This document shows, one piece after another, positions 807 to 23,479 of a stretch of DNA of 24,358 nucleotides. The first letter of the stretch is position 1; every line of letters starts with the position of its first letter. Source of the stretch: Prevotella sp. Lineage in GTDB: Bacteria > Bacteroidota > Bacteroidia > Bacteroidales > Bacteroidaceae. Where the stretch lies: positions 1 to 24,358 of the forward strand of contig JAGAPI010000130.1 of NCBI GenBank assembly GCA_017623335.1, written 5' to 3'. Both the position numbers and the translations under genes were made by a program. The notes below the pieces were generated by a model. It saw nothing but the letters and a program-made list of their open reading frames with translations, was not told where the DNA came from and did not search any database.

Positions 807-1004
807 AAATGAAGAATGAAGAAACGTAAGTTCGACGAAGTCAATGAAGAATGAAGAATCAACGAGCGGCGACCGAAGAGGAAACCGATTTTATAAATTT
901 GGATTGAGGATTAAGGATTCAGTATCAAGGATTCTTCATTCTTCATTCTATACCAAAGATTCTTCATTGACTTCGTCGAACTTATGTTTCTTCATTCTTC
1001 ATTC
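807..1004. repeat. Long inverted repeat, GAAGAATGAAGAA family (copy 1)
   Basis: The arm at 807-852 is complementary to the arm at 959-1004 at 44 of 46 positions by direct comparison, with a 106-nt spacer. The arms contain GAAGAATGAAGAA and the 15-mer TTCGACGAAGTCAAT (831-845, inverted at 966-980). The 15-mer recurs at 6628-6642 and, with one change, at 6698-6712. A related inverted repeat with the same GAAGAATGAAGAA ends lies at 19595-19705. It encodes no recognisable protein and looks like a MITE-like or palindromic dispersed repeat. The mismatch C/T between arms falls at position 985, the T of the ATG used by the next gene. Confidence 0.85.
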
Positions 1005-4958: not shown

Positions 4959-5029
4959 TATAAAATGAAATTTTAATATTTTTTGTTGAGCGAGAGTTAC
5001 TAGTAACTTATATTCGTGTTCAGCAGTTT

Positions 5030-5126
5030 ACGATTCTATTTCCTACATTTACGATTCTATTTCCTACATTTACGATTTTATTTCCTATATTTACAATTCT
5101 ATTTCCTACATTTATGATTCTGTTTC
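5030..5126. repeat. 21-bp tandem repeat (minisatellite), about 4.6 units
   Basis: Units start at 5030, 5051, 5072, 5093 and 5114 (last partial) with core ACGATTCTATTTCCTACATT; units 1 and 2 are identical, and units 3 and 4 differ by two bases and one base. On the minus strand the repeat is open and would read as (NRIVNVG)n within an 84-codon frame, but that frame has no other gene-like property and is not called. Confidence 0.9.
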
Positions 5127-5234
5127 GATGTGTTCTGCGATAAAATGTGTAGTGTGGTTCTTTATATATTTTAACAGTGCAGGGCACATCCTTTATGTTA
5201 AATAATATGATAATGTGTGCAAAAAATGCGGCAT

Positions 5235-5258
5235 TTTGGAAAAAATAGTGTAACTTTG
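5235..5258 (+). promoter_or_regulatory. uxuA promoter
   Basis: TAACTTTG at 5251-5258 is an exact TAnnTTTG -7 element, with TTTG at 5235-5238 as a -33-like element at slightly short spacing (16 bp start to start against about 19-21). The leader to ATG 5316 would be about 50 nt. Its position inside a longer GTG-started frame (5217) argues that the true start is downstream. Confidence 0.7.
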
Positions 5259-5315
5259 CGGTTGAATAAGGCAATATATGGTAAAACTAAATTAAAACAT
5301 AATCTTTTTAGAAAT

Positions 5316-6569
5316 ATGGAAAGAACATGGAGATGGTTTGGCAAGAACGACAAGATAACTCTTGCCATGCTGCGTGAGATAGGTGTGGAGGGCATTGTCA
5401 CTGCTCTGCACGATGTGCCATTGGGCGAGGTGTGGACACGTGAGAAGATCCGTGACCTGCGTGAGTATATCGAGAGTTACGGAATGCGCTGGAGCGTGGT
5501 TGAGTCGCTGCCGGTGGTGGAGACAATCAAATATGGCGGTCCCGACCGTGACCGTCAGATTGAGGTATATAAGGAGAGCCTGCGCAATCTGTCGGCTGAG
5601 GGCATACATACCATTTGCTACAACTTTATGCCAGTGCTCGACTGGGCACGCACCGACTTGATGCACGCCAATCCCAACGGTTCTACAAACCTCTATTTCA
5701 ACTATGCCGAGTTTGCATACTTCGACATATATATATTGAAGCGCGAGGGAGCACGTGAGGAGTGGGCTGCATTCCGTTTCCCTGACGGGGTGGGCGAGGA
5801 CCGTGACGTTTTGGCTGAATGCGACGAGCTGGCAAAGACCATGACCCCGGAGAAAGACCACCAACTGGTGGAGAACATAGTAATCAAGACTCAGGGTTTT
5901 GTGAGCGGCAATTTCAGTGAGAACGACGAGGCACCGGTTCAGAAATTCCGCGAGTTCCTTGATTTATATAAAGGTATAGACAAAAAACAGCTGCGTGAGA
6001 ATATGAAGTACTTCCTTGAGGCAATCATGCCTGTTTGCGAGGAGTGTGACATGAACATGTGTGTGCATCCCGATGACCCGCCAATTGAGATTCTCGGACT
6101 GCCGCGCATTGTGCGTACAGAGGAAGACATACAGTGGTTCCTTGATGCTGTGCCCAACAAGCACAACGGCTTGACATTCTGCGCAGGGTCGCTGTCGGCA
6201 GGTGCCTATAACGATGTGGTGGAGATGGCACGCAAGTTTGCCCCGCGTACTCATTTCGTTCATCTGCGCTCTTGCCATATCTTCCCCAACGGCGACTTTA
6301 CGGAGGCAAGCCATCTTGGCGGACGTGCCGACCTGGTGGAACTGGCGAGAATATTCGAGAAAGAGAATCCGCAGCTGCCGATGCGTGTTGACCATGGCAT
6401 GACTTTCACCGACCAGCCGGGAGGCATCATGGATGAGTCGAGTCATGGACATAATGCAGGATATACTTTCCTTGGAAGAATGTTCGCAATGGGACAGGTG
6501 CAGGGAATACTTGCCACTGTGGACAAGGAGCTTGGCATTGAGTATAAGCAGCCGGGATTCTTTGAGTAA
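5316..6569 (+). CDS. uxuA: Mannonate dehydratase
   Basis: 417 residues from ATG 5316 (MERTWRWFGKNDKITLAMLREIG is the standard UxuA opening after the first Met). The enzyme dehydrates D-mannonate to 2-keto-3-deoxygluconate in the cytosolic glucuronate pathway. It is a TIM-barrel metalloenzyme. Visible conserved blocks: GVEGIVTALHDVPLGEVW near the N-terminus, MCVHPDDPP with C249 and H251, FVHLRSCHIFPNGDF with H316, and MRVDHGMTF with D359-H360, together the likely divalent-metal site. GRMFAMGQVQGIL close to the C-terminus is also typical. Length is close to the E. coli enzyme (394) with a modest insertion. The next gene on the strand is an SDR oxidoreductase that fits the preceding step, so the pair probably forms the hexuronate branch, though a 165-bp repeat-rich spacer lies between. 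An exact TAnnTTTG promoter lies ahead. A frame extending to GTG 5217 crosses the promoter and is rejected. Confidence 0.96.
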   Translation: MERTWRWFGKNDKITLAMLREIGVEGIVTALHDVPLGEVWTREKIRDLREYIESYGMRWSVVESLPVVETIKYGGPDRDRQIEVYKESLRNLSAEGIHTICYNFMPVLDWARTDLMHANPNGSTNLYFNYAEFAYFDIYILKREGAREEWAAFRFPDGVGEDRDVLAECDELAKTMTPEKDHQLVENIVIKTQGFVSGNFSENDEAPVQKFREFLDLYKGIDKKQLRENMKYFLEAIMPVCEECDMNMCVHPDDPPIEILGLPRIVRTEEDIQWFLDAVPNKHNGLTFCAGSLSAGAYNDVVEMARKFAPRTHFVHLRSCHIFPNGDFTEASHLGGRADLVELARIFEKENPQLPMRVDHGMTFTDQPGGIMDESSHGHNAGYTFLGRMFAMGQVQGILATVDKELGIEYKQPGFFE

Positions 6570-15381: not shown

Positions 15382-16482
15382 ATGCTGATAAGAGTAGTTA
15401 TATTCTCACTGATAATTCTTGTGCTGGTGGGCATGGTGTTCTTTGTCTGCTGGCTGATAGGGTGGTGTGCCATGCACTTGTTTCACACCCAGCGCAACTA
15501 CGGCATTTGGGCTGGCGGTGCGGTGGTGCTGTTTGCCGTTTACATTATAATCTACGGCTGCACCATAGGATTCGGCAAGCTTGACATCCGCCGTATCACC
15601 TTTTCCTCAGTCGAATTGCCGAAGGAGTTCGACGGATACAGGATTGTGCATTTCTCGGATGCGCATTTGGGCACCTACGGAATGTCGCGCCAGCATCTTC
15701 TTGCCCGCAATGTAGACTCTATCAACGCGCTTCGTCCCGACCTCATCGTGTTTACGGGCGATATTCAGAACCTGGAGCCCTCGGAGATACTGCCGCAGAT
15801 GCAGATTCTCAGCCGTCTGAAGGCTAAGGACGGAGTTATTTCCTGTCTCGGCAACCACGACTATCCCATCTACGTGCGCGATGCCTCGCCCCGGCAGAAG
15901 GCAGCCAACCTGCGCGAGACCATCGGTCTGCAGAGGCAGATGGGGTGGACGGTGCTGCTCAACGAAAATGTCAGGATAACGCGCGATGCCAGCCATTCCG
16001 GCGATTCTGCGTCGGCTGCGGCATTTTCTGCCAGCCATTCCGGCGGTTCTGCGTCGGCTGCGGCATTTCCTGTCAGCCATTCCGGCGATTCTGCGGCCGC
16101 AAAGCCTTCGATAGTCGTTGCCGGCATGGAGAACGACGGCGACGGCAGGCGTTTCCCCAGAATGGGCGACATTGCCAAGACGCTCCGTGGGGTAAGCGAC
16201 GCAGACTTTGTGGTGATGCTCCAGCACGACCCTACACATTGGCGCGACAAGATACTGAAAGAAAGCCACGTGCAGCTGACTCTCAGCGGGCATACCCATG
16301 CCTCGCAGTTTATGCTGCTGGGCTGGTCGCCTGTGCAGTACTTCTACGACGACTGGGCGGGAGTGACCAACATCGGCGGGCGCGCCATCAACGTGAGCAC
16401 GGGCATGGGCGGTTTCATCCCGTTCCGCTTCGGAGTTCCCGGCGAGATTTGCCTTATAACGCTTAAAAGTGAAACTAAATAA
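15382..16482 (+). CDS. Membrane-anchored metallophosphoesterase (YkuE-like) with repeat insertion
   Basis: 366 residues. Two N-terminal membrane helices (about 4-29 and 43-63) are followed by a calcineurin-like phosphoesterase domain with all metal motifs: D93-x-H95 (HFSDAHLG), G126-D127 (FTGDIQN), G157-N-H-D160 (LGNHDYP), H282-D283 (LQHDPTHW) and G303-H-T-H306 (LSGHTHASQF). The substrate is not predictable. Residues about 203-240 are a low-complexity insertion made of a 14-residue unit (SHSGDSASAAAF plus two) repeated 2.6 times, lying between the strand NENVRI and SIVVAGMEND where relatives usually have a short turn. The reading frame survives because the DNA unit is 42 bp. An acyltransferase gene follows after 8 nt, suggesting an operon; a link to membrane lipid metabolism is only an inference from that neighbour. 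Confidence 0.9.
   Translation: MLIRVVIFSLIILVLVGMVFFVCWLIGWCAMHLFHTQRNYGIWAGGAVVLFAVYIIIYGCTIGFGKLDIRRITFSSVELPKEFDGYRIVHFSDAHLGTYGMSRQHLLARNVDSINALRPDLIVFTGDIQNLEPSEILPQMQILSRLKAKDGVISCLGNHDYPIYVRDASPRQKAANLRETIGLQRQMGWTVLLNENVRITRDASHSGDSASAAAFSASHSGGSASAAAFPVSHSGDSAAAKPSIVVAGMENDGDGRRFPRMGDIAKTLRGVSDADFVVMLQHDPTHWRDKILKESHVQLTLSGHTHASQFMLLGWSPVQYFYDDWAGVTNIGGRAINVSTGMGGFIPFRFGVPGEICLITLKSETK
15991..16100 (+). repeat. 42-bp tandem repeat inside the phosphoesterase gene, 2.6 units
   Basis: Units start at 15991, 16033 and 16075 (last partial, to about 16100), each opening AGCCATTCCGGCGRTTCTGC. Units 1 and 2 differ at only a few bases. It is in frame with the host gene and adds Ser/Ala-rich sequence. 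Confidence 0.9.
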
Positions 16483-17377: not shown

Positions 17378-17412
17378 CACCCGGTAAGAGAAATATGGGG
17401 GAGAGTAAGTTA

Positions 17413-17480
17413 GGCACGGATTACACGGATATCACGGATAAGATAAATAAGAACACAGCGGAATCCGTGTAATCCGTGCC
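17413..17480. repeat. Palindromic dispersed repeat, GGCACGGATTACACGGAT family (copy A)
   Basis: GGCACGGATTACACGGAT (17413-17430) and its exact reverse complement (17463-17480) give a perfect 18-bp stem with a 32-nt loop. A second copy is at 21224-21297. It lies within the predicted leader of the M13 peptidase mRNA. Confidence 0.9.
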
Positions 17481-17562
17481 AAAAATAAAGTGCGACAGAC
17501 GTTCTCCGACGATCTGGAGGAGAATTAAGAGAAAACAGTGTAATTAATAAAATAAGTAGAAA

Positions 17563-19594: not shown

Positions 19595-19705
19595 GAAATG
19601 AAGAATGAATAATGAAGAATGAAGAATTGGCTGCGCAGCAAAACTTATAAGCAATCTCTGCGCCAAAGGAAAATTCTTCATTCTCCATTCTTCATTCTTC
19701 ATTTC
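19595..19705. repeat. Inverted repeat, GAAGAATGAAGAA family (copy 3)
   Basis: Arms 19595-19628 and 19672-19705 are complementary at 32 of 34 positions, with outer ends GAAATGAAGAATGAA. The 43-nt centre contains a further short GC-rich pairing (GCGCAG with CTGCGC). It starts 5 nt after the peptidase stop and may serve as its terminator-like structure. It shares the GAAGAATGAAGAA arms with the 807-1004 repeat but not the TTCGACGAAGTCAAT word. Confidence 0.85.
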
Positions 19706-19807: not shown

Positions 19808-21202
19808 ATGCAAGACAAATATAAAGAGTTGTGGGACAGTTGCCTGCGGCTTATCCGTGAGAGTGTCAGCGAGCAGCAGTACCGGACGTGGTTCAGCCAC
19901 ATCGGATACGGCAGCTACTCTGAGGACAGCAAGACTCTGCTGTTGCAGCTTCCAAGTATGTACGTCTACGAATACTTGGAGGAGCACTACGTCGCGCTCT
20001 TGTCGAAAGTCATCGGCACATGCTTCGGAAAGGACGTGAGGCTCAACTATAAGCTCATGGCCGACAAGGCTCACAACATCACGCAGGAGGTGGAGAGCGA
20101 CACTGTGTCGGCAGAGACCGGCAGTCCTGCCGCCGCGCAGCGGGAAACCGGCGTGCAGAACATCGACCCGCAGCTCAACCGCCAGCAGTCGTTCAACAAC
20201 TATATCGAGGGAGCGAGCAACAAGCTCTCGCGCACGGTGGGCATCTCAATAGCCGAGCATCCGGGAAAGTCTACCTTCAATCCGTTCTTCATCTACGGGC
20301 CTTCGGGCTGCGGAAAGACTCACCTCATCAACGCCATCGGGCTGCGCTGCAGGGAGCTCTATCCTGCCAAGCGCATACTCTACGTCAGCGCCCGGCTCTT
20401 CCAGGTGCAGTATACCGACGCCGTGCGCCGCAACCTGCTCAACGACTTCATCAACTTCTATCAGTCGCTCGACCTGCTCATCGTTGACGACATCCAGGAG
20501 TGGGCGACGGAGAAGACCGTCGACACCTTCTTCCACATCTTCAACCACCTGTTCCGCCTCGGCAAGCAGATAATCCTCGCCTCCGACCGCCCGCCCGTGG
20601 AGCTGCAGGGCATGAAGGACCGTCTGCTCACGCGCTTTAAGTGCGGACTGATAGCCGAGCTGGAGAAACCCAACGTGGAGCTGTGCGTGGACATCCTCAA
20701 CAGCAAGTGCCGCCACGACGGGCTGACAATTCCCGCCGAGGTGATACAGTTTATTGCCGGAAGCGCCAACGGCAGCGTGCGCGACCTGCAGGGAGTAATC
20801 AACTCGCTGCTTGCCTACTCGGTGGTTTACAACAGCAAGATTGACCTGCGGCTGGCAGAGCGCGTGATTAAGCGCGCCGTGAAGATGGACGACCACCCCC
20901 TGACCGTGGACGACATTCTGGAAAAGGCGTGCCAGCACTACGGAGTGACCCAGCAGAACGTAATGTCGCGCAGCCGCAAGCGCGACTACGTCATAGTGCG
21001 CCAGGTATCAATGTTTCTCGCTCAGAAGCACACCAAGATGCCGGCCTCGCGCATAGGACAGCTAATAGGCAACCGCGACCACTCCACCGTAATCCACAGC
21101 TGCAGCATAATAGAAAACAGAATAAAAGTCGACAAGGCGTTTGCCGACGAGCTGGCAAGCATAGAGACTTCGCTGAAGCTCAAGGATGGTGTGTCGAAAT
21201 GA
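19808..21202 (+). CDS. dnaA: Chromosomal replication initiator protein DnaA
   Basis: 464 residues with all DnaA domains. Domain I (about 1-85) begins LWDSCLRLIRESVSEQQYRTW. A variable linker (about 90-125) follows. The AAA+ domain has FNNYIEGASNKLSRTVG, Walker A GPSGCGKTH (164-172) and Walker B LLIVDDIQ (D227, D228). Domain IV carries the DnaA signature RIGQLIGNRDHSTVIHS (R422 to T426 in RDHST), which contacts DnaA boxes, and the helix MSRSRKRDYVIVRQVSMFLA. It unwinds oriC to start replication. Walker A has Cys before GKT where many homologues have Val. A promoter and an inverted repeat lie upstream, and a terminator and iteron-like array downstream. Confidence 0.96.
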   Translation: MQDKYKELWDSCLRLIRESVSEQQYRTWFSHIGYGSYSEDSKTLLLQLPSMYVYEYLEEHYVALLSKVIGTCFGKDVRLNYKLMADKAHNITQEVESDTVSAETGSPAAAQRETGVQNIDPQLNRQQSFNNYIEGASNKLSRTVGISIAEHPGKSTFNPFFIYGPSGCGKTHLINAIGLRCRELYPAKRILYVSARLFQVQYTDAVRRNLLNDFINFYQSLDLLIVDDIQEWATEKTVDTFFHIFNHLFRLGKQIILASDRPPVELQGMKDRLLTRFKCGLIAELEKPNVELCVDILNSKCRHDGLTIPAEVIQFIAGSANGSVRDLQGVINSLLAYSVVYNSKIDLRLAERVIKRAVKMDDHPLTVDDILEKACQHYGVTQQNVMSRSRKRDYVIVRQVSMFLAQKHTKMPASRIGQLIGNRDHSTVIHSCSIIENRIKVDKAFADELASIETSLKLKDGVSK

Positions 21203-21223
21203 AGTAATCACGATGATATAAAT

Positions 21224-21297
21224 CAGGCACGGATTACACGGAATACACAGATTTTTTTTCTTTCACTAATCTGTGACATCCGTGTAATCCGTGCCTG
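21224..21297. repeat. Palindromic dispersed repeat, GGCACGGATTACACGGAT family (copy B)
   Basis: CAGGCACGGATTACACGGA (21224-21242) pairs perfectly with 21279-21297 (19 bp). An inner stem CACAGATT (21246-21253) / AATCTGTG (21268-21275) extends it. It shares the 17 bp GGCACGGATTACACGGA with copy A at 17413; the loops differ. Confidence 0.9.
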
Positions 21298-21306
21298 AAA
21301 ATAAGT

Positions 21307-21338
21307 AGGAGGTTGGTTTTGACACACCTCCTTTTTTG
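21307..21338 (+). terminator. Terminator downstream of dnaA
   Basis: AGGAGGT (21307-21313) with ACCTCCT (21326-21332), 12-nt loop, followed by a T run (21332-21337). Confidence 0.75.
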
Positions 21339-21420
21339 TGTGACGGCACGGCTTTCCTGCCGCAAATCCGTGATTCCTGCCGCCCGCGCCAGCCCTTAAA
21401 AACTTATTCCGGGGACTATC

Positions 21421-21614
21421 AAAAAAATTATAGTTATAATCTGAAAAAATTATAGTTATAATTTTTTTGAATCATGCGCATAAAAATCTTCTGTGCCGGA
21501 CTTGAAAAAAATTATGTACAGGATTTGAAAAAATTATGTACAGGATTTGAGAAAATTATGTACAGGATTTGAGAAAATTATGTACAAGATTTTTTTGAAT
21601 TATGCGCATAAAAA
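21421..21614. repeat. 22-bp-phased iteron-like array with flanking palindromes
   Basis: Two ATTATAGTTATAAT units (21427-21440, 21449-21462) and four TTATGTACA units (21512-21520, 21534-21542, 21556-21564, 21578-21586), each series at exactly 22-bp spacing, share an A-rich lead (TGARAAAATTAT). A 25-mer with core GAATYATGCGCATAAAAA occurs at 21462-21486 and 21590-21614 with one change; the second copy contains the perfect palindrome TTATGCGCATAA (21600-21611). TTATGTACA and TTATGCGCA each differ by one base from the DnaA-box consensus TTATNCACA. Possible origin-like element, protein-binding array or minisatellite. Confidence 0.85.
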
Positions 21615-21652
21615 ATTCCGCACGCCGGACACAGGGTCGCGGACGTGCGGAA
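21611..21652 (-). terminator. Terminator for the beta-helix protein gene
   Basis: On the minus strand TTCCGCACG (plus 21644-21652) pairs with CGTGCGGAA (plus 21616-21624), followed by a T run (the A run at plus 21611-21615). Perfect 9-bp stem, located about 65 nt after the stop. Confidence 0.75.
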
Positions 21653-21718
21653 ACCACGGTAACAAAAGTATGATTTTATTTTCTGATAAGCACGGCTTTT
21701 ATTGCATAAGCGCGGACT

Positions 21719-23479
21719 TTATTTGAGATACACGATTCCGGCGCGGCTCTTGATGCTGTCGCTCACCTCGGGACCGTTGTTTTCCCAGGTATTCCCAGGT
21801 CCGTTGGCGTTCTTGAGGAACTTCTCGCTTGGTGTCCAGTTGTTCTTCACCGTTATGCCCGACGAGCCCTCGTCGGTGTACAGGTAAAACCAGTGGTTCG
21901 GGTCGTGGGCGTAGCCGGGCGTGTAGATATCCCTCACCACGTTGCCCTCGATGAGCGAATGCGGCTGAGCTCCGAGCGTGTATATGCCTGCCGTGTCGTA
22001 CATGTGGCGCGCGTAGTGGTGGATGAGGTTGTTGAGCACCTTGTTGTTCGCCATGGCGCACGGCTGCTGGTTCCATCCCCATCCCATGGATATTCCCGTG
22101 TAGGAAACCTCGCTTATCTCGTTGTGGCTTATGAGGATGTCGCGCACGTATCCCGCGGCGATGCCCACGCAGCCCCAGTCCTCGTTGGTCACGTCGGTTA
22201 TGGCGTTGTTGCTGATGGTCAGCCCGCGGCAAATCTCGCGCCCGTCGGCAGGGTCGTAGGGCAGGTGAGCCTCGTGGGCGTAGTCGCCGAAGGTGCCTGC
22301 CACGATGCCGTTGCCGCCAACGTCCTGTATGCGGCAATACTCAATCCTGCCGCCCTTTATGTACTTGTTGTAGTCGATGGCGGTGGAGGCTATGTGCTCG
22401 AAGGTGCAGTTTAGGAAGCTCACGTCCTCGGCGCAGCTCACGCTGACGGCTGCGGCGGGGCGGCCCGTCCATCCCTGATTGTCCAGCTTGTGGTCGCCGT
22501 TGGGGCGCGCCAGTTTGGGGCGCAGCTTAAACGCCTCGGTCATGAACATTCCGGCTTGCAGCGGCGCGTGACCCTCTATCGAGGGGCGCAGCCACGTAGA
22601 GTGACTGAAGGTGATGCCGCGGAAGGTTATTCCAGTCGCCATGCGCTCGGGCGTGCCCTCCACGCGGAGCAGCGTCTCCACCGCCGGCACCTCCACCTCG
22701 GCTGTAGCCATCTGCTCGCCCTGTCTCGGGATGTAATACACCTTTTCCGCCTTGCGGTCCAGCCACCACTCGCCCCCGTTGTCCAGCAGCGCGCGGCTGC
22801 CAGTGAGGTAGAATGCCGAGTTGTGCTCTCCCCCGGGCGTAACCATTGGCGACGGCCACGGGTGCATGAAGTGTATGTGGCTCTCGGGCTGGTGGAACGT
22901 CACGGCGGCGCTGTCGCCTCCCATCATCCTGACCTCTTTTATGCGGAGGTTGGCAACGCACCACATCTCGTGGAGCACCATCTCGGCGTCGTCAGCTCCC
23001 TGAATCTTCCTCACCGCCGCGGCTGGCACGTAGAGCACCTCCTTCGCTTTGTCGATGCTCATGATGCGGTGCATCTGCTCGAAGTCGGCAACGTCGCGGG
23101 CTCTCACGGCTTTTTTGCCGTTCACCCACATCTGGCGGAACTCCAGTGGGCGCCCGTTGTGGCGCGGCACGTCGGCAACCCACAGCTTGCCCTGGCGCTT
23201 CCAGCCGCTTATCCTCACGCCGCCGCTTATCACCACCTTGCCTTCGCCGACGATGCGTGTGCCGCTGTCCTCGGGGCGCACGTAGATGGGCTGGTTAAGC
23301 CGGTAGGTGCCCTCGGTGAGTTTAATGGTTATGTCTTTTTCGCCGTCGAGCAGCCTCGCCCGCCGCGCCTCCTGAAGCGCCTGCTCAATGGCGTAGCCGC
23401 CAGGCCTGACAACGATGTCTCTCGCTTCTGCCACGGCGAATGCCGCCAGCGACAGGGCTGTAAAAAATAATCTCTTCAT
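21719..23479 (-). CDS. Secreted right-handed parallel beta-helix protein, GH141-like glycoside hydrolase candidate
   Basis: 586 residues. The signal peptide MKRLFFTALSLAAFAVAEA is followed by IVVRPGGYAIEQALQEARRA, the usual opening of pectate-lyase-fold enzymes. About residues 300-560 show parallel-beta-helix repeats (RGLTISNNAITDVTNEDWG, RDILISHNEISEVSYTGI, NNKVLNNLIHHYA, HSLIEGNVVRDIY). The beta-sandwich-like insertion (about 90-280) with VVISGGVRISGW and FRQMWVNGKKAVRARD is typical of GH141/GH120-like enzymes. Two Asp, D495 (HMYDTAGIY) and D536 (YTDEGSSG), are 41 residues apart, like the Asp pair I recall for the Bacteroides GH141 fucosidase BT1002; this is recollection, not a search. GH141 members act on fucosides or xylan. 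No other polysaccharide-utilisation gene is adjacent. A terminator follows. Family assignment is tentative; the fold is secure. Confidence 0.75.
   Translation of the reverse strand: MKRLFFTALSLAAFAVAEARDIVVRPGGYAIEQALQEARRARLLDGEKDITIKLTEGTYRLNQPIYVRPEDSGTRIVGEGKVVISGGVRISGWKRQGKLWVADVPRHNGRPLEFRQMWVNGKKAVRARDVADFEQMHRIMSIDKAKEVLYVPAAAVRKIQGADDAEMVLHEMWCVANLRIKEVRMMGGDSAAVTFHQPESHIHFMHPWPSPMVTPGGEHNSAFYLTGSRALLDNGGEWWLDRKAEKVYYIPRQGEQMATAEVEVPAVETLLRVEGTPERMATGITFRGITFSHSTWLRPSIEGHAPLQAGMFMTEAFKLRPKLARPNGDHKLDNQGWTGRPAAAVSVSCAEDVSFLNCTFEHIASTAIDYNKYIKGGRIEYCRIQDVGGNGIVAGTFGDYAHEAHLPYDPADGREICRGLTISNNAITDVTNEDWGCVGIAAGYVRDILISHNEISEVSYTGISMGWGWNQQPCAMANNKVLNNLIHHYARHMYDTAGIYTLGAQPHSLIEGNVVRDIYTPGYAHDPNHWFYLYTDEGSSGITVKNNWTPSEKFLKNANGPGNTWENNGPEVSDSIKSRAGIVYLK

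What the first reader, a model, noticed from the sequence alone, without database searches (positions are those of the whole stretch)
21421..21614. 22-bp-phased iteron-like array, insulated by terminators, beside dnaA
Six A-rich units in exact 22-bp phase fall into two subtypes (ATTATAGTTATAAT twice, TTATGTACA four times) and are bracketed by two copies of a palindromic GAATYATGCGCATAAAAA element. The array sits between convergent genes, with a terminator on each side, so it is unlikely to be a promoter. TTATGTACA and TTATGCGCA are each one base off the DnaA-box consensus, the region is very AT-rich, and dnaA is the neighbour. An origin, a DnaA-titration site or another protein-binding array are possible. 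Against oriC: flanking genes point toward it, and no perfect DnaA box is present.
Basis: partly seen in the sequence, partly recalled or inferred. Interest (0 to 1): 0.75.

Follow-up and report, generated by a model that had tools for sequence, protein, structure and literature searches.

The report
Prevotella array of 22-bp-phased palindromes
Beside dnaA in an uncultured Prevotella relative lies a short array of small palindromes set 22 bp apart; it does not look like a replication origin, but like one case of a spacing rule seen in non-coding DNA of Prevotella, possibly the footprint of an unidentified DNA-binding protein.

Summary
The array is real: two blocks of imperfect palindromes, A-A-B and D-D-D-D-B', with dyad centres exactly 22 bp apart inside each block and a 40-bp step between blocks. 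Each B closes a block; the Bs do not bracket the whole.

Origin and DnaA-titration readings are not supported: no perfect DnaA box is near, GC skew does not reverse at dnaA in four relatives, and a paper reports oriC far from dnaA in Bacteroidetes.

Unexpectedly, 22 bp is a sharp period of Prevotella intergenic DNA: 55 of 1013 intergenic regions against 1 of 350 in other Bacteroidia. Some genomes carry their own dyad motif at many loci. In one, 82 of 85 close spacings are exactly 22 bp although the 5-bp spacers are near random and orientation is mixed, so spacing appears constrained while sequence drifts.

I read the window array as a probably young member of this class, likely a lattice for a dimeric DNA-binding protein. 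Class membership is moderately supported; the protein is inferred. Slippage minisatellite and bidirectional hairpin/terminator remain live rivals. The window's own genome is not held, so recurrence of its units could not be tested.

The parts
19808..21202 (+). dnaA, upstream convergent neighbour
   Evidence: Pfam Bac_DnaA, Bac_DnaA_C, DnaA_N
21223..21298 (.). long inverted repeat just after dnaA (31-nt arms, 90% complementary), related to an element at 17410-17483
21307..21337 (+). candidate dnaA terminator: 7-bp stem, 12-nt loop, T-run 21332-21337
   Evidence: sequence; fold of 21300-21345 -12.6 kcal/mol, z -1.6; not listed by the consensus scan
21419..21470 (.). block 1 body: two A dyads (ATTATAGTTATAAT, centres 21433.5 and 21455.5) between TCA7 and T7GA ends
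   Evidence: on + folds as one 22-bp stem, z -6.9
21469..21486 (+). element B (GAATCATGCGCATAAAAA), dyad centre 21477.5, 22 bp after the last A dyad
21487..21501 (.). inter-block spacer containing CCGG (centre 21497.5), where the 22-bp phase breaks
   Evidence: sequence
21502..21596 (.). block 2 body: four D dyads (AAATTATGTACAGGATTT, one mismatch in the fourth; centres 21517.5, 21539.5, 21561.5, 21583.5) between TTGA7 and GAT7 ends
   Evidence: 21500-21616 folds with z -5.1 on +
21597..21614 (+). element B' (GAATTATGCGCATAAAAA), dyad centre 21605.5, 22 bp after the last D dyad
21616..21652 (-). candidate terminator of the convergent gene; its T-run on the - strand is the A-run 21610-21615, mostly the tail of B'
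   Evidence: sequence; fold of 21605-21655 on - is -23.9 kcal/mol, z -2.0; not listed by the scan
21719..23479 (-). GH141_M / right-handed beta-helix protein, convergent neighbour
   Evidence: Pfam PF21231, PF13229

Best explanation
The array is one instance of a Prevotella-lineage class of intergenic arrays in which short imperfect palindromes sit on a 22-bp lattice (about two helical turns). The palindrome sequence differs between genomes and partly within a genome; the spacing mostly does not. The mechanism I think most likely: each palindrome is a site for a dimer of a sequence-specific DNA-binding protein, and the fixed 22-bp step lets neighbouring dimers sit on nearly the same face of the helix and bind cooperatively. 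It would act as a chromosomal or regulatory binding element rather than an origin. Shown: the 22-bp dyad spacing here, the 22-bp peak in Prevotella samples and not in the other Bacteroidia sampled, the conservation of spacing over sequence in one genome (G118). Inferred: that the window array belongs to the same class, that a protein binds, and what the binding does.
For: Window: eight dyads, and all six adjacent steps inside the blocks are exactly 22 bp, including two between unrelated palindromes (A to B, D to B'). Class: after removing lags explained by shorter periods, lag 22 is found in 18 of 394 intergenic regions of 80 Prevotella dnaA loci (lag 21: 10, lag 23: 4) and in 38 of 636 of four 400-kb stretches (21: 9; 23: 8), against 1 of 350 in 40 other Bacteroidia loci (the window is in none of these sets). 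Three of the 80 loci lie inside the stretches; without them 17 of 377, pooled 55 of 1013, Fisher P 1.2e-6, or 1.4e-4 for the 77 loci alone; without G118 the stretches still give 21 of 454 (21: 8; 23: 7). G118: motif CGGAAAAGcCTCTTCCG, 159 intergenic sites; positions above threshold 2.36 per kb intergenic, 0.36 per kb coding. Neighbouring sites 20-24 bp apart: 82 at 22, 2 at 20, 1 at 21. Identity of units 22 bp apart is 0.63 in the motif and 0.36 in the 5-bp spacer, orientation the same in 46 of 85; intergenic alignments between Prevotella loci show about 0.1 gap openings per mismatch in most identity bins, so by my arithmetic about 26 indels would be expected in the spacers alone against 3 irregular spacings. 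Spacers within an array are no more alike than between arrays (0.35 adjacent, 0.33 between) and not complementary (0.28); in G118 sub-threshold sites continue at exactly 22 and 44 bp beyond array ends on both sides. Genus scan: of 76 distinct listed places (hand count) in 18 of 249 genomes where a GAAANGNCNNTTY pair lies 20-28 bp apart, 63 are at exactly 22; several share an array, and not every place of three genomes was listed. No arm covariation in G118, ne3005 or Tc2-24.
Against: Three of the four D units are 21-22 of 22 identical, spacers included, which fits recent tandem duplication. The own genome is not held, so recurrence at other loci is untested. The window has another tandem array with period 21 (5027-5126), and 21-bp arrays occur in other Prevotella. 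The phase breaks between the two blocks. A general test for unrelated palindromes at 22 bp gave a weak signal in the four stretches (22 bp: 19 against 11 shuffled; 44 bp: 28 against 10; other distances also reach 22-23) and none in the 80 loci (22 bp: 8 against 5; peaks at 33 and 36 bp instead). In Tc2-24 spacing is looser (8 at 22, 5 at 23), and G118 has three spacings of 65 against one of 66. In ne3005 the register beyond array ends is seen on the left only. MA2016 shows only five lag-22 regions. The indel estimate assumes that adjacent units descend from one another. Motifs were chosen because they formed arrays. No protein has been identified.
Confidence: 0.45

Rival explanations
1. An ordinary minisatellite: slipped-strand duplication produced 22-bp repeats in an unconstrained convergent spacer, with no function.
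For: D1-D3 are 21-22 of 22 identical and D4 18 of 22. Other tandem repeats lie in the same window (periods 7, 21, 42 among others). The array sequence was not found in 20 relative genomes and array presence downstream of dnaA is sporadic.
Against: It does not explain why 22 bp stands out in the Prevotella samples and not in 40 other Bacteroidia loci, nor exact spacing with near-random spacers and mixed orientation in G118, nor exact 22-bp steps between unrelated palindromes here.
Confidence: 0.3
2. A bidirectional hairpin element (terminator or mRNA 3' end stabiliser): each block is bounded by A7 and T7, and its palindromes in register let the whole block fold back as one stem on either strand.
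For: Blocks fold far below shuffles (z -6.9 and -5.1 on +, -5.7 and -3.3 on -). Block ends are inverted copies. Three of four arrays in 60 kb of G263 carry A5/T5 ends; of these three, two fold on + as one long stem and one is branched. The flanking genes are convergent.
Against: The window stems are mostly A-U. Candidate terminators already flank the array. In G118 T5 follows 0 of 30 arrays and spacers are not complementary, arms do not covary, and 12 of its 29 multi-site spacers are divergent. One G263 array also appears to lie between divergent ORFs, by a mechanical ORF list.
Confidence: 0.15
3. A small dispersed mobile element (MITE-like) with conserved ends and a variable internal array, present twice side by side here.
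For: The two blocks share the right end ATTTTTTTGAATYATGCGCATAAAAA and similar A7 left ends, with different interiors (for the end repeats). Three of four G263 arrays are cassettes of four units with constant ends. BrickBuilt of P. gingivalis is a minisatellite in a MITE (PMC4596501, abstract read).
Against: No target duplication is evident by eye at the G263 cassettes. B at up to one mismatch is found in 3 of 150 genus genomes, once in each. Copy number in the window's genome is unknown.
Confidence: 0.08
4. Replication origin or DnaA-titration site.
For: Next to dnaA, A+T-rich; 9 of the window's 56 sites within one mismatch of TTWTNCACA lie in the array.
Against: No perfect site within 8 kb to the left or up to the window's end on the right; no skew reversal at dnaA in four relatives; oriC reported far from dnaA in Bacteroidetes (PMC4755523, passages); convergent genes; the motif strings are absent from 80 relative dnaA loci.
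Confidence: 0.02

Closest known systems
BrickBuilt minisatellite-containing MITE of Porphyromonas gingivalis (PMC4596501; abstract and passages read)
   Same: Bacteroidales, intergenic, tandem units of about two helical turns, flanking leader/tail with small inverted ends
   Different: Unit is 23 nt and one family within one species; here the unit is 22 bp, palindromic, and differs between genomes
PINSR, the 188-bp Prevotella intermedia/nigrescens repeat (PMC4755523; passages read)
   Same: Prevotella, intergenic, many loci
   Different: A 188-bp dispersed repeat restricted to a few species; the passages read do not describe a phased array
Chromosome-wide dyad sites of organising proteins (parS/ParB, NBS/Noc, SBS/SlmA; recalled, not looked up)
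   Same: Degenerate short dyads at many chromosomal loci
   Different: Recalled as mostly single sites; here dyads form 22-bp lattices, and no protein is known
REP/BIME palindromes (recalled)
   Same: Intergenic imperfect palindromes in clusters
   Different: No fixed 22-bp step that I recall; RAYT association not tested here
Plasmid iterons of about 22 bp (recalled)
   Same: Period near 22 bp, A+T-rich, near an initiator gene
   Different: Iterons lie with plasmid rep genes; blastn of the array against 72,556 plasmid records gave one record, Ligilactobacillus, 30% covered at 79%

Membership tests
Bacterial oriC | cluster of DnaA boxes (TTWTNCACA; recalled consensus) | tested here: not met
   four perfect sites in the window, the nearest 8 kb from the array; nine sites with one mismatch inside it
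Bacterial oriC | GC-skew turning point at the locus | tested here: inconclusive
   not met at dnaA in four relatives; the window's own genome is not held
Plasmid iteron origin | replication initiator gene of plasmid type beside the repeats | tested here: not met
   the three genes scanned are dnaA, a GH141/beta-helix protein and an ORF with tRNA_SAD and DHHA1 domains
Prevotella 22-bp dyad arrays (class described here) | adjacent dyad centres exactly 22 bp apart | tested here: met
   six of six adjacent steps inside the blocks; one 40-bp step between blocks
Prevotella 22-bp dyad arrays (class described here) | units are imperfect palindromes in intergenic DNA | tested here: met
Prevotella 22-bp dyad arrays (class described here) | same dyad recurring at many loci of the genome | not testable with these tools
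   own genome not held; not elsewhere in the 24-kb window beyond one 3-mismatch B site
Prevotella 22-bp dyad arrays (class described here) | spacers diverged while spacing is kept | tested here: inconclusive
   met between A and B and between D and B'; not met among D1-D3
BrickBuilt MITE | 23-nt tandem unit | tested here: not met
   period 22
Intrinsic terminator | G+C-containing stem followed by a T-run | tested here: not met
   no terminator-like site listed in 21150-21800; block stems are mostly A-U
REP elements with RAYT | cognate RAYT transposase in the genome | not tested
   own genome not held; not searched in relatives

The most novel reading that the evidence does not exclude
Prevotella chromosomes carry a lineage-specific DNA-binding protein that assembles cooperatively on a 22-bp lattice of dyads at many intergenic loci. 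Its recognition sequence turns over rapidly between species while the lattice spacing, set by protein geometry, is kept: a spacing-first chromosomal element for which I found no description, and of which the window array is a young example.
Probability: 0.25. Interest if true: 0.8.

Novelty: new variant of a known kind. Interest (0 to 1): 0.55.

Why it matters
If the 22-bp lattice reflects a protein, Prevotella (recalled as major gut, rumen and oral bacteria) have a chromosome-wide binding system whose spacing is conserved while its sequence drifts; ordinary motif-conservation searches across species would miss it. If it is instead a slippage product, one lineage has a strongly preferred minisatellite unit length, which is also unexplained. 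Nine literature searches on such repeats returned no paper that by its listing describes it; only PMC4755523 and PMC4596501 were opened, and most subscription papers are not in that library.

Tried and rejected
Origin and DnaA titration: rejected on boxes, skew in relatives and literature. The skew test has limits: dnaA lies about 200 kb from both ends of the stretch in two genomes, but only 72 kb (Tc2-24) and 16 kb (MA2016) from one end in the others, and ne3005 has a small local rise about 60-90 kb before dnaA. Plasmid or phage relationship: one partial Ligilactobacillus plasmid hit, phages none. Viral contigs: no exact D string; one exact B match with no array seen in the 701 bases read around it. 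Rfam: no match at gathering thresholds in the window. No tRNA in the window. Conservation of the array downstream of dnaA: exact motif strings in 0 of 80 loci, 0 of 20 genomes by blastn (the tool warns that an empty answer without a positive control shows nothing). A dnaA-specific role: 6 of 53 dnaA-3' spacers including the window against 15 of 359 others; among convergent spacers 4 of 23 against 7 of 27. Convergent preference: clear in the dnaA loci (9 of 48 convergent, 0 of 93 divergent, 9 of 253 tandem) but not in the four stretches (6 of 83, 12 of 142, 20 of 411), so not general. Hairpin selection inside units: no covariation, though choosing sites by a position matrix weakens that test. 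Unrelated-palindrome phasing as a general rule: weak or absent. The first period spectrum used crude gene calls and was superseded; gene calls are my own simple caller throughout. One 22-bp hit (L068) lies in a masked run of N and is an artefact; it is the single divergent hit and one of its 15 non-dnaA hits; N was excluded. Genus-scan control (pattern reversed): 17 matches in 13 of 249 genomes, spacings not listed, against 104 forward matches in 18.

Full report
What is there. The spacer between dnaA (19808-21202 +) and a convergent GH141/beta-helix gene (21719-23479 -) holds, from left to right: a long inverted repeat (21223-21298), a hairpin with a T-run (21307-21337), then the array, then a hairpin that is followed by a T-run when read on the minus strand (21616-21652). 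The consensus scan listed neither hairpin as a terminator. The array has two blocks. Block 1 is two copies of ATTATAGTTATAAT followed by element B; block 2 is four copies of AAATTATGTACAGGATTT (one mismatch in the fourth) followed by B'. The units are imperfect palindromes. Measured between dyad centres, all six adjacent steps inside blocks are exactly 22 bp, including the steps from A to B and from D to B', which join unrelated sequences. Between B and the first D the step is 40 bp. Each block is bounded by an A7 run on the left and a T7 run on the right, and the right ends, with B, are shared. Tandem Repeats Finder reports period 22. Apart from one 3-mismatch B site the motifs do not recur in the window.

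Where it comes from. DnaA is 75% identical to the nearest locus kept from the genome collection (Prevotella sp. HAN019) and 97-99% identical to six proteins for which no source gave a name. The whole genome is not held, so genome-wide questions were asked of relatives.

Not an origin. The nearest perfect TTWTNCACA box is 8 kb to the left, with none to the right up to the window's end. Sites with at most one mismatch are more frequent in the window than in shuffles (56 against 39; 1 of 100 shuffles reached it) and nine lie in the array, through repetition of D and the palindromy of B. PMC4755523 states that in Bacteroidetes oriC is commonly far from dnaA (passages read). The skew of the window's own chromosome was not measured.

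A 22-bp rule in Prevotella. Comparing intergenic DNA with itself at each offset gave a sharp peak at 22 and 44 bp in the four stretches. With lags explained by shorter periods removed, lag 22 is found in 18 of 394 intergenic regions from 80 Prevotella dnaA loci (21: 10; 23: 4) and 38 of 636 in the stretches (21: 9; 23: 8), but in 0 of 180 regions of 20 class-level and 1 of 170 of 20 order-level Bacteroidia loci. Three of the 80 loci lie inside the stretches; without them the first count is 17 of 377 and the pool 55 of 1013 (P 1.2e-6; 1.4e-4 for the 77 loci alone). G118 gives 17 of the 38, ne3005 8, Tc2-24 8, MA2016 5; without G118 it is 21 of 454 against 8 at lag 21 and 7 at lag 23. The loci of both groups lie around dnaA, so both are sampled at the same place in the genome.

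Spacing conserved over sequence. In G118 a 17-bp imperfect palindrome has 159 sites in 69 kb of intergenic DNA. Of 85 neighbouring pairs 20-24 bp apart, 82 are at 22, two at 20 and one at 21. The 5-bp spacers are close to random, within arrays as between arrays, and orientation is mixed. Intergenic alignments between Prevotella loci show about one gap opening per ten mismatches in most identity bins, so freely drifting arrays should show many more irregular spacings. In G118 sub-threshold sites continue in register at 22 and 44 bp beyond both ends; in ne3005 this is seen on the left only. A genus-wide scan allowing 20 to 28 bp found 63 of 76 distinct listed places at exactly 22 (hand count, places matched on both strands counted once; several share an array; further places of G118, G073 and G263 were not listed). 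Exceptions are real: G049 has 23 bp in all three places, Tc2-24 has 8 at 22 and 5 at 23, and G118 has three spacings of 65 against one of 66. In G263, three of four arrays found in 60 kb are cassettes of four units bounded by A5 and T5 runs; those stretches were picked because the scan had shown hits there.

Reading. Strict spacing with drifting spacers, dyad symmetry, mixed orientation and no arm covariation are what a cooperatively bound dimeric protein would leave. They are less like slippage, which predicts similar spacers, or hairpin selection, which predicts complementary arms and spacers. For the window array itself the case is weaker: D1-D3 are near-identical, so recent duplication contributed, and the A7/T7 ends and stable folds keep the hairpin rival alive. 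The strongest point for class membership is that unrelated palindromes in it obey the same 22-bp step. Mixed unit types in register are visible in other arrays such as L032 and L053, but the general test for this was weak in one sample and absent in the other.

Known or new. BrickBuilt (23-nt, P. gingivalis; abstract and passages read) and PINSR (188 bp, P. intermedia; passages read) are the nearest described repeats I found; neither is a 22-bp dyad lattice. Nine literature searches on such repeats returned no paper that by its listing describes one; a tenth concerned origins.

Verdict. Observation mostly right, origin reading not supported, binding-array reading plausible and broadened to a lineage-wide pattern. 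The protein, its function and the recurrence of the window's own units remain open.

Noticed in passing
window 5027-5126: A second tandem array, 4.8 copies of a 21-bp unit (TTTACGATTCTATTTCCTACA), upstream of the ORF at 5217-6569.
   Followed up: no
window 17410-17483 and 21223-21298: Two related CACGGATTACACGGAT-type inverted-repeat elements, one just downstream of dnaA; the latter folds into a very stable hairpin.
   Followed up: no
window 808-1003 and 19595-19705: Inverted pairs of heptanucleotide AATGAAG repeats; 7-bp repeats (lags 7, 14, 21, 28) are a second periodicity in Prevotella intergenic DNA.
   Followed up: partly
window 15987-16112: Three 42-bp repeats inside the ORF 15382-16482.
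   Followed up: no
G118 C17, about 332795-334674: An 88-bp repeat, four times 22, in a 1.9-kb spacer; probably the main source of the strong same-word distance signal at multiples of 22 up to 264 bp in that genome.
   Followed up: no
L206 9335-9462, L207 12904-13031, L208 14118-14245: Cassettes of four 22-bp dyads with AAAAACAAATG / CATTTGTTTTT-type ends (CACTTGTTTTT at one end of L207) in genome G263; some internal spacers are themselves palindromic.
   Followed up: partly
L047 5348-5407 and 5446-5543: A 21-bp palindromic array and, 38 bp further, a 22-bp array in the same spacer upstream of dnaA.
   Followed up: no
Prevotella intergenic DNA, four 400-kb stretches: Lags 16 and 24 are also raised (21 and 16 of 636 regions), in part from 8-bp units (6 and 10 after sub-periods are removed).
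   Followed up: no
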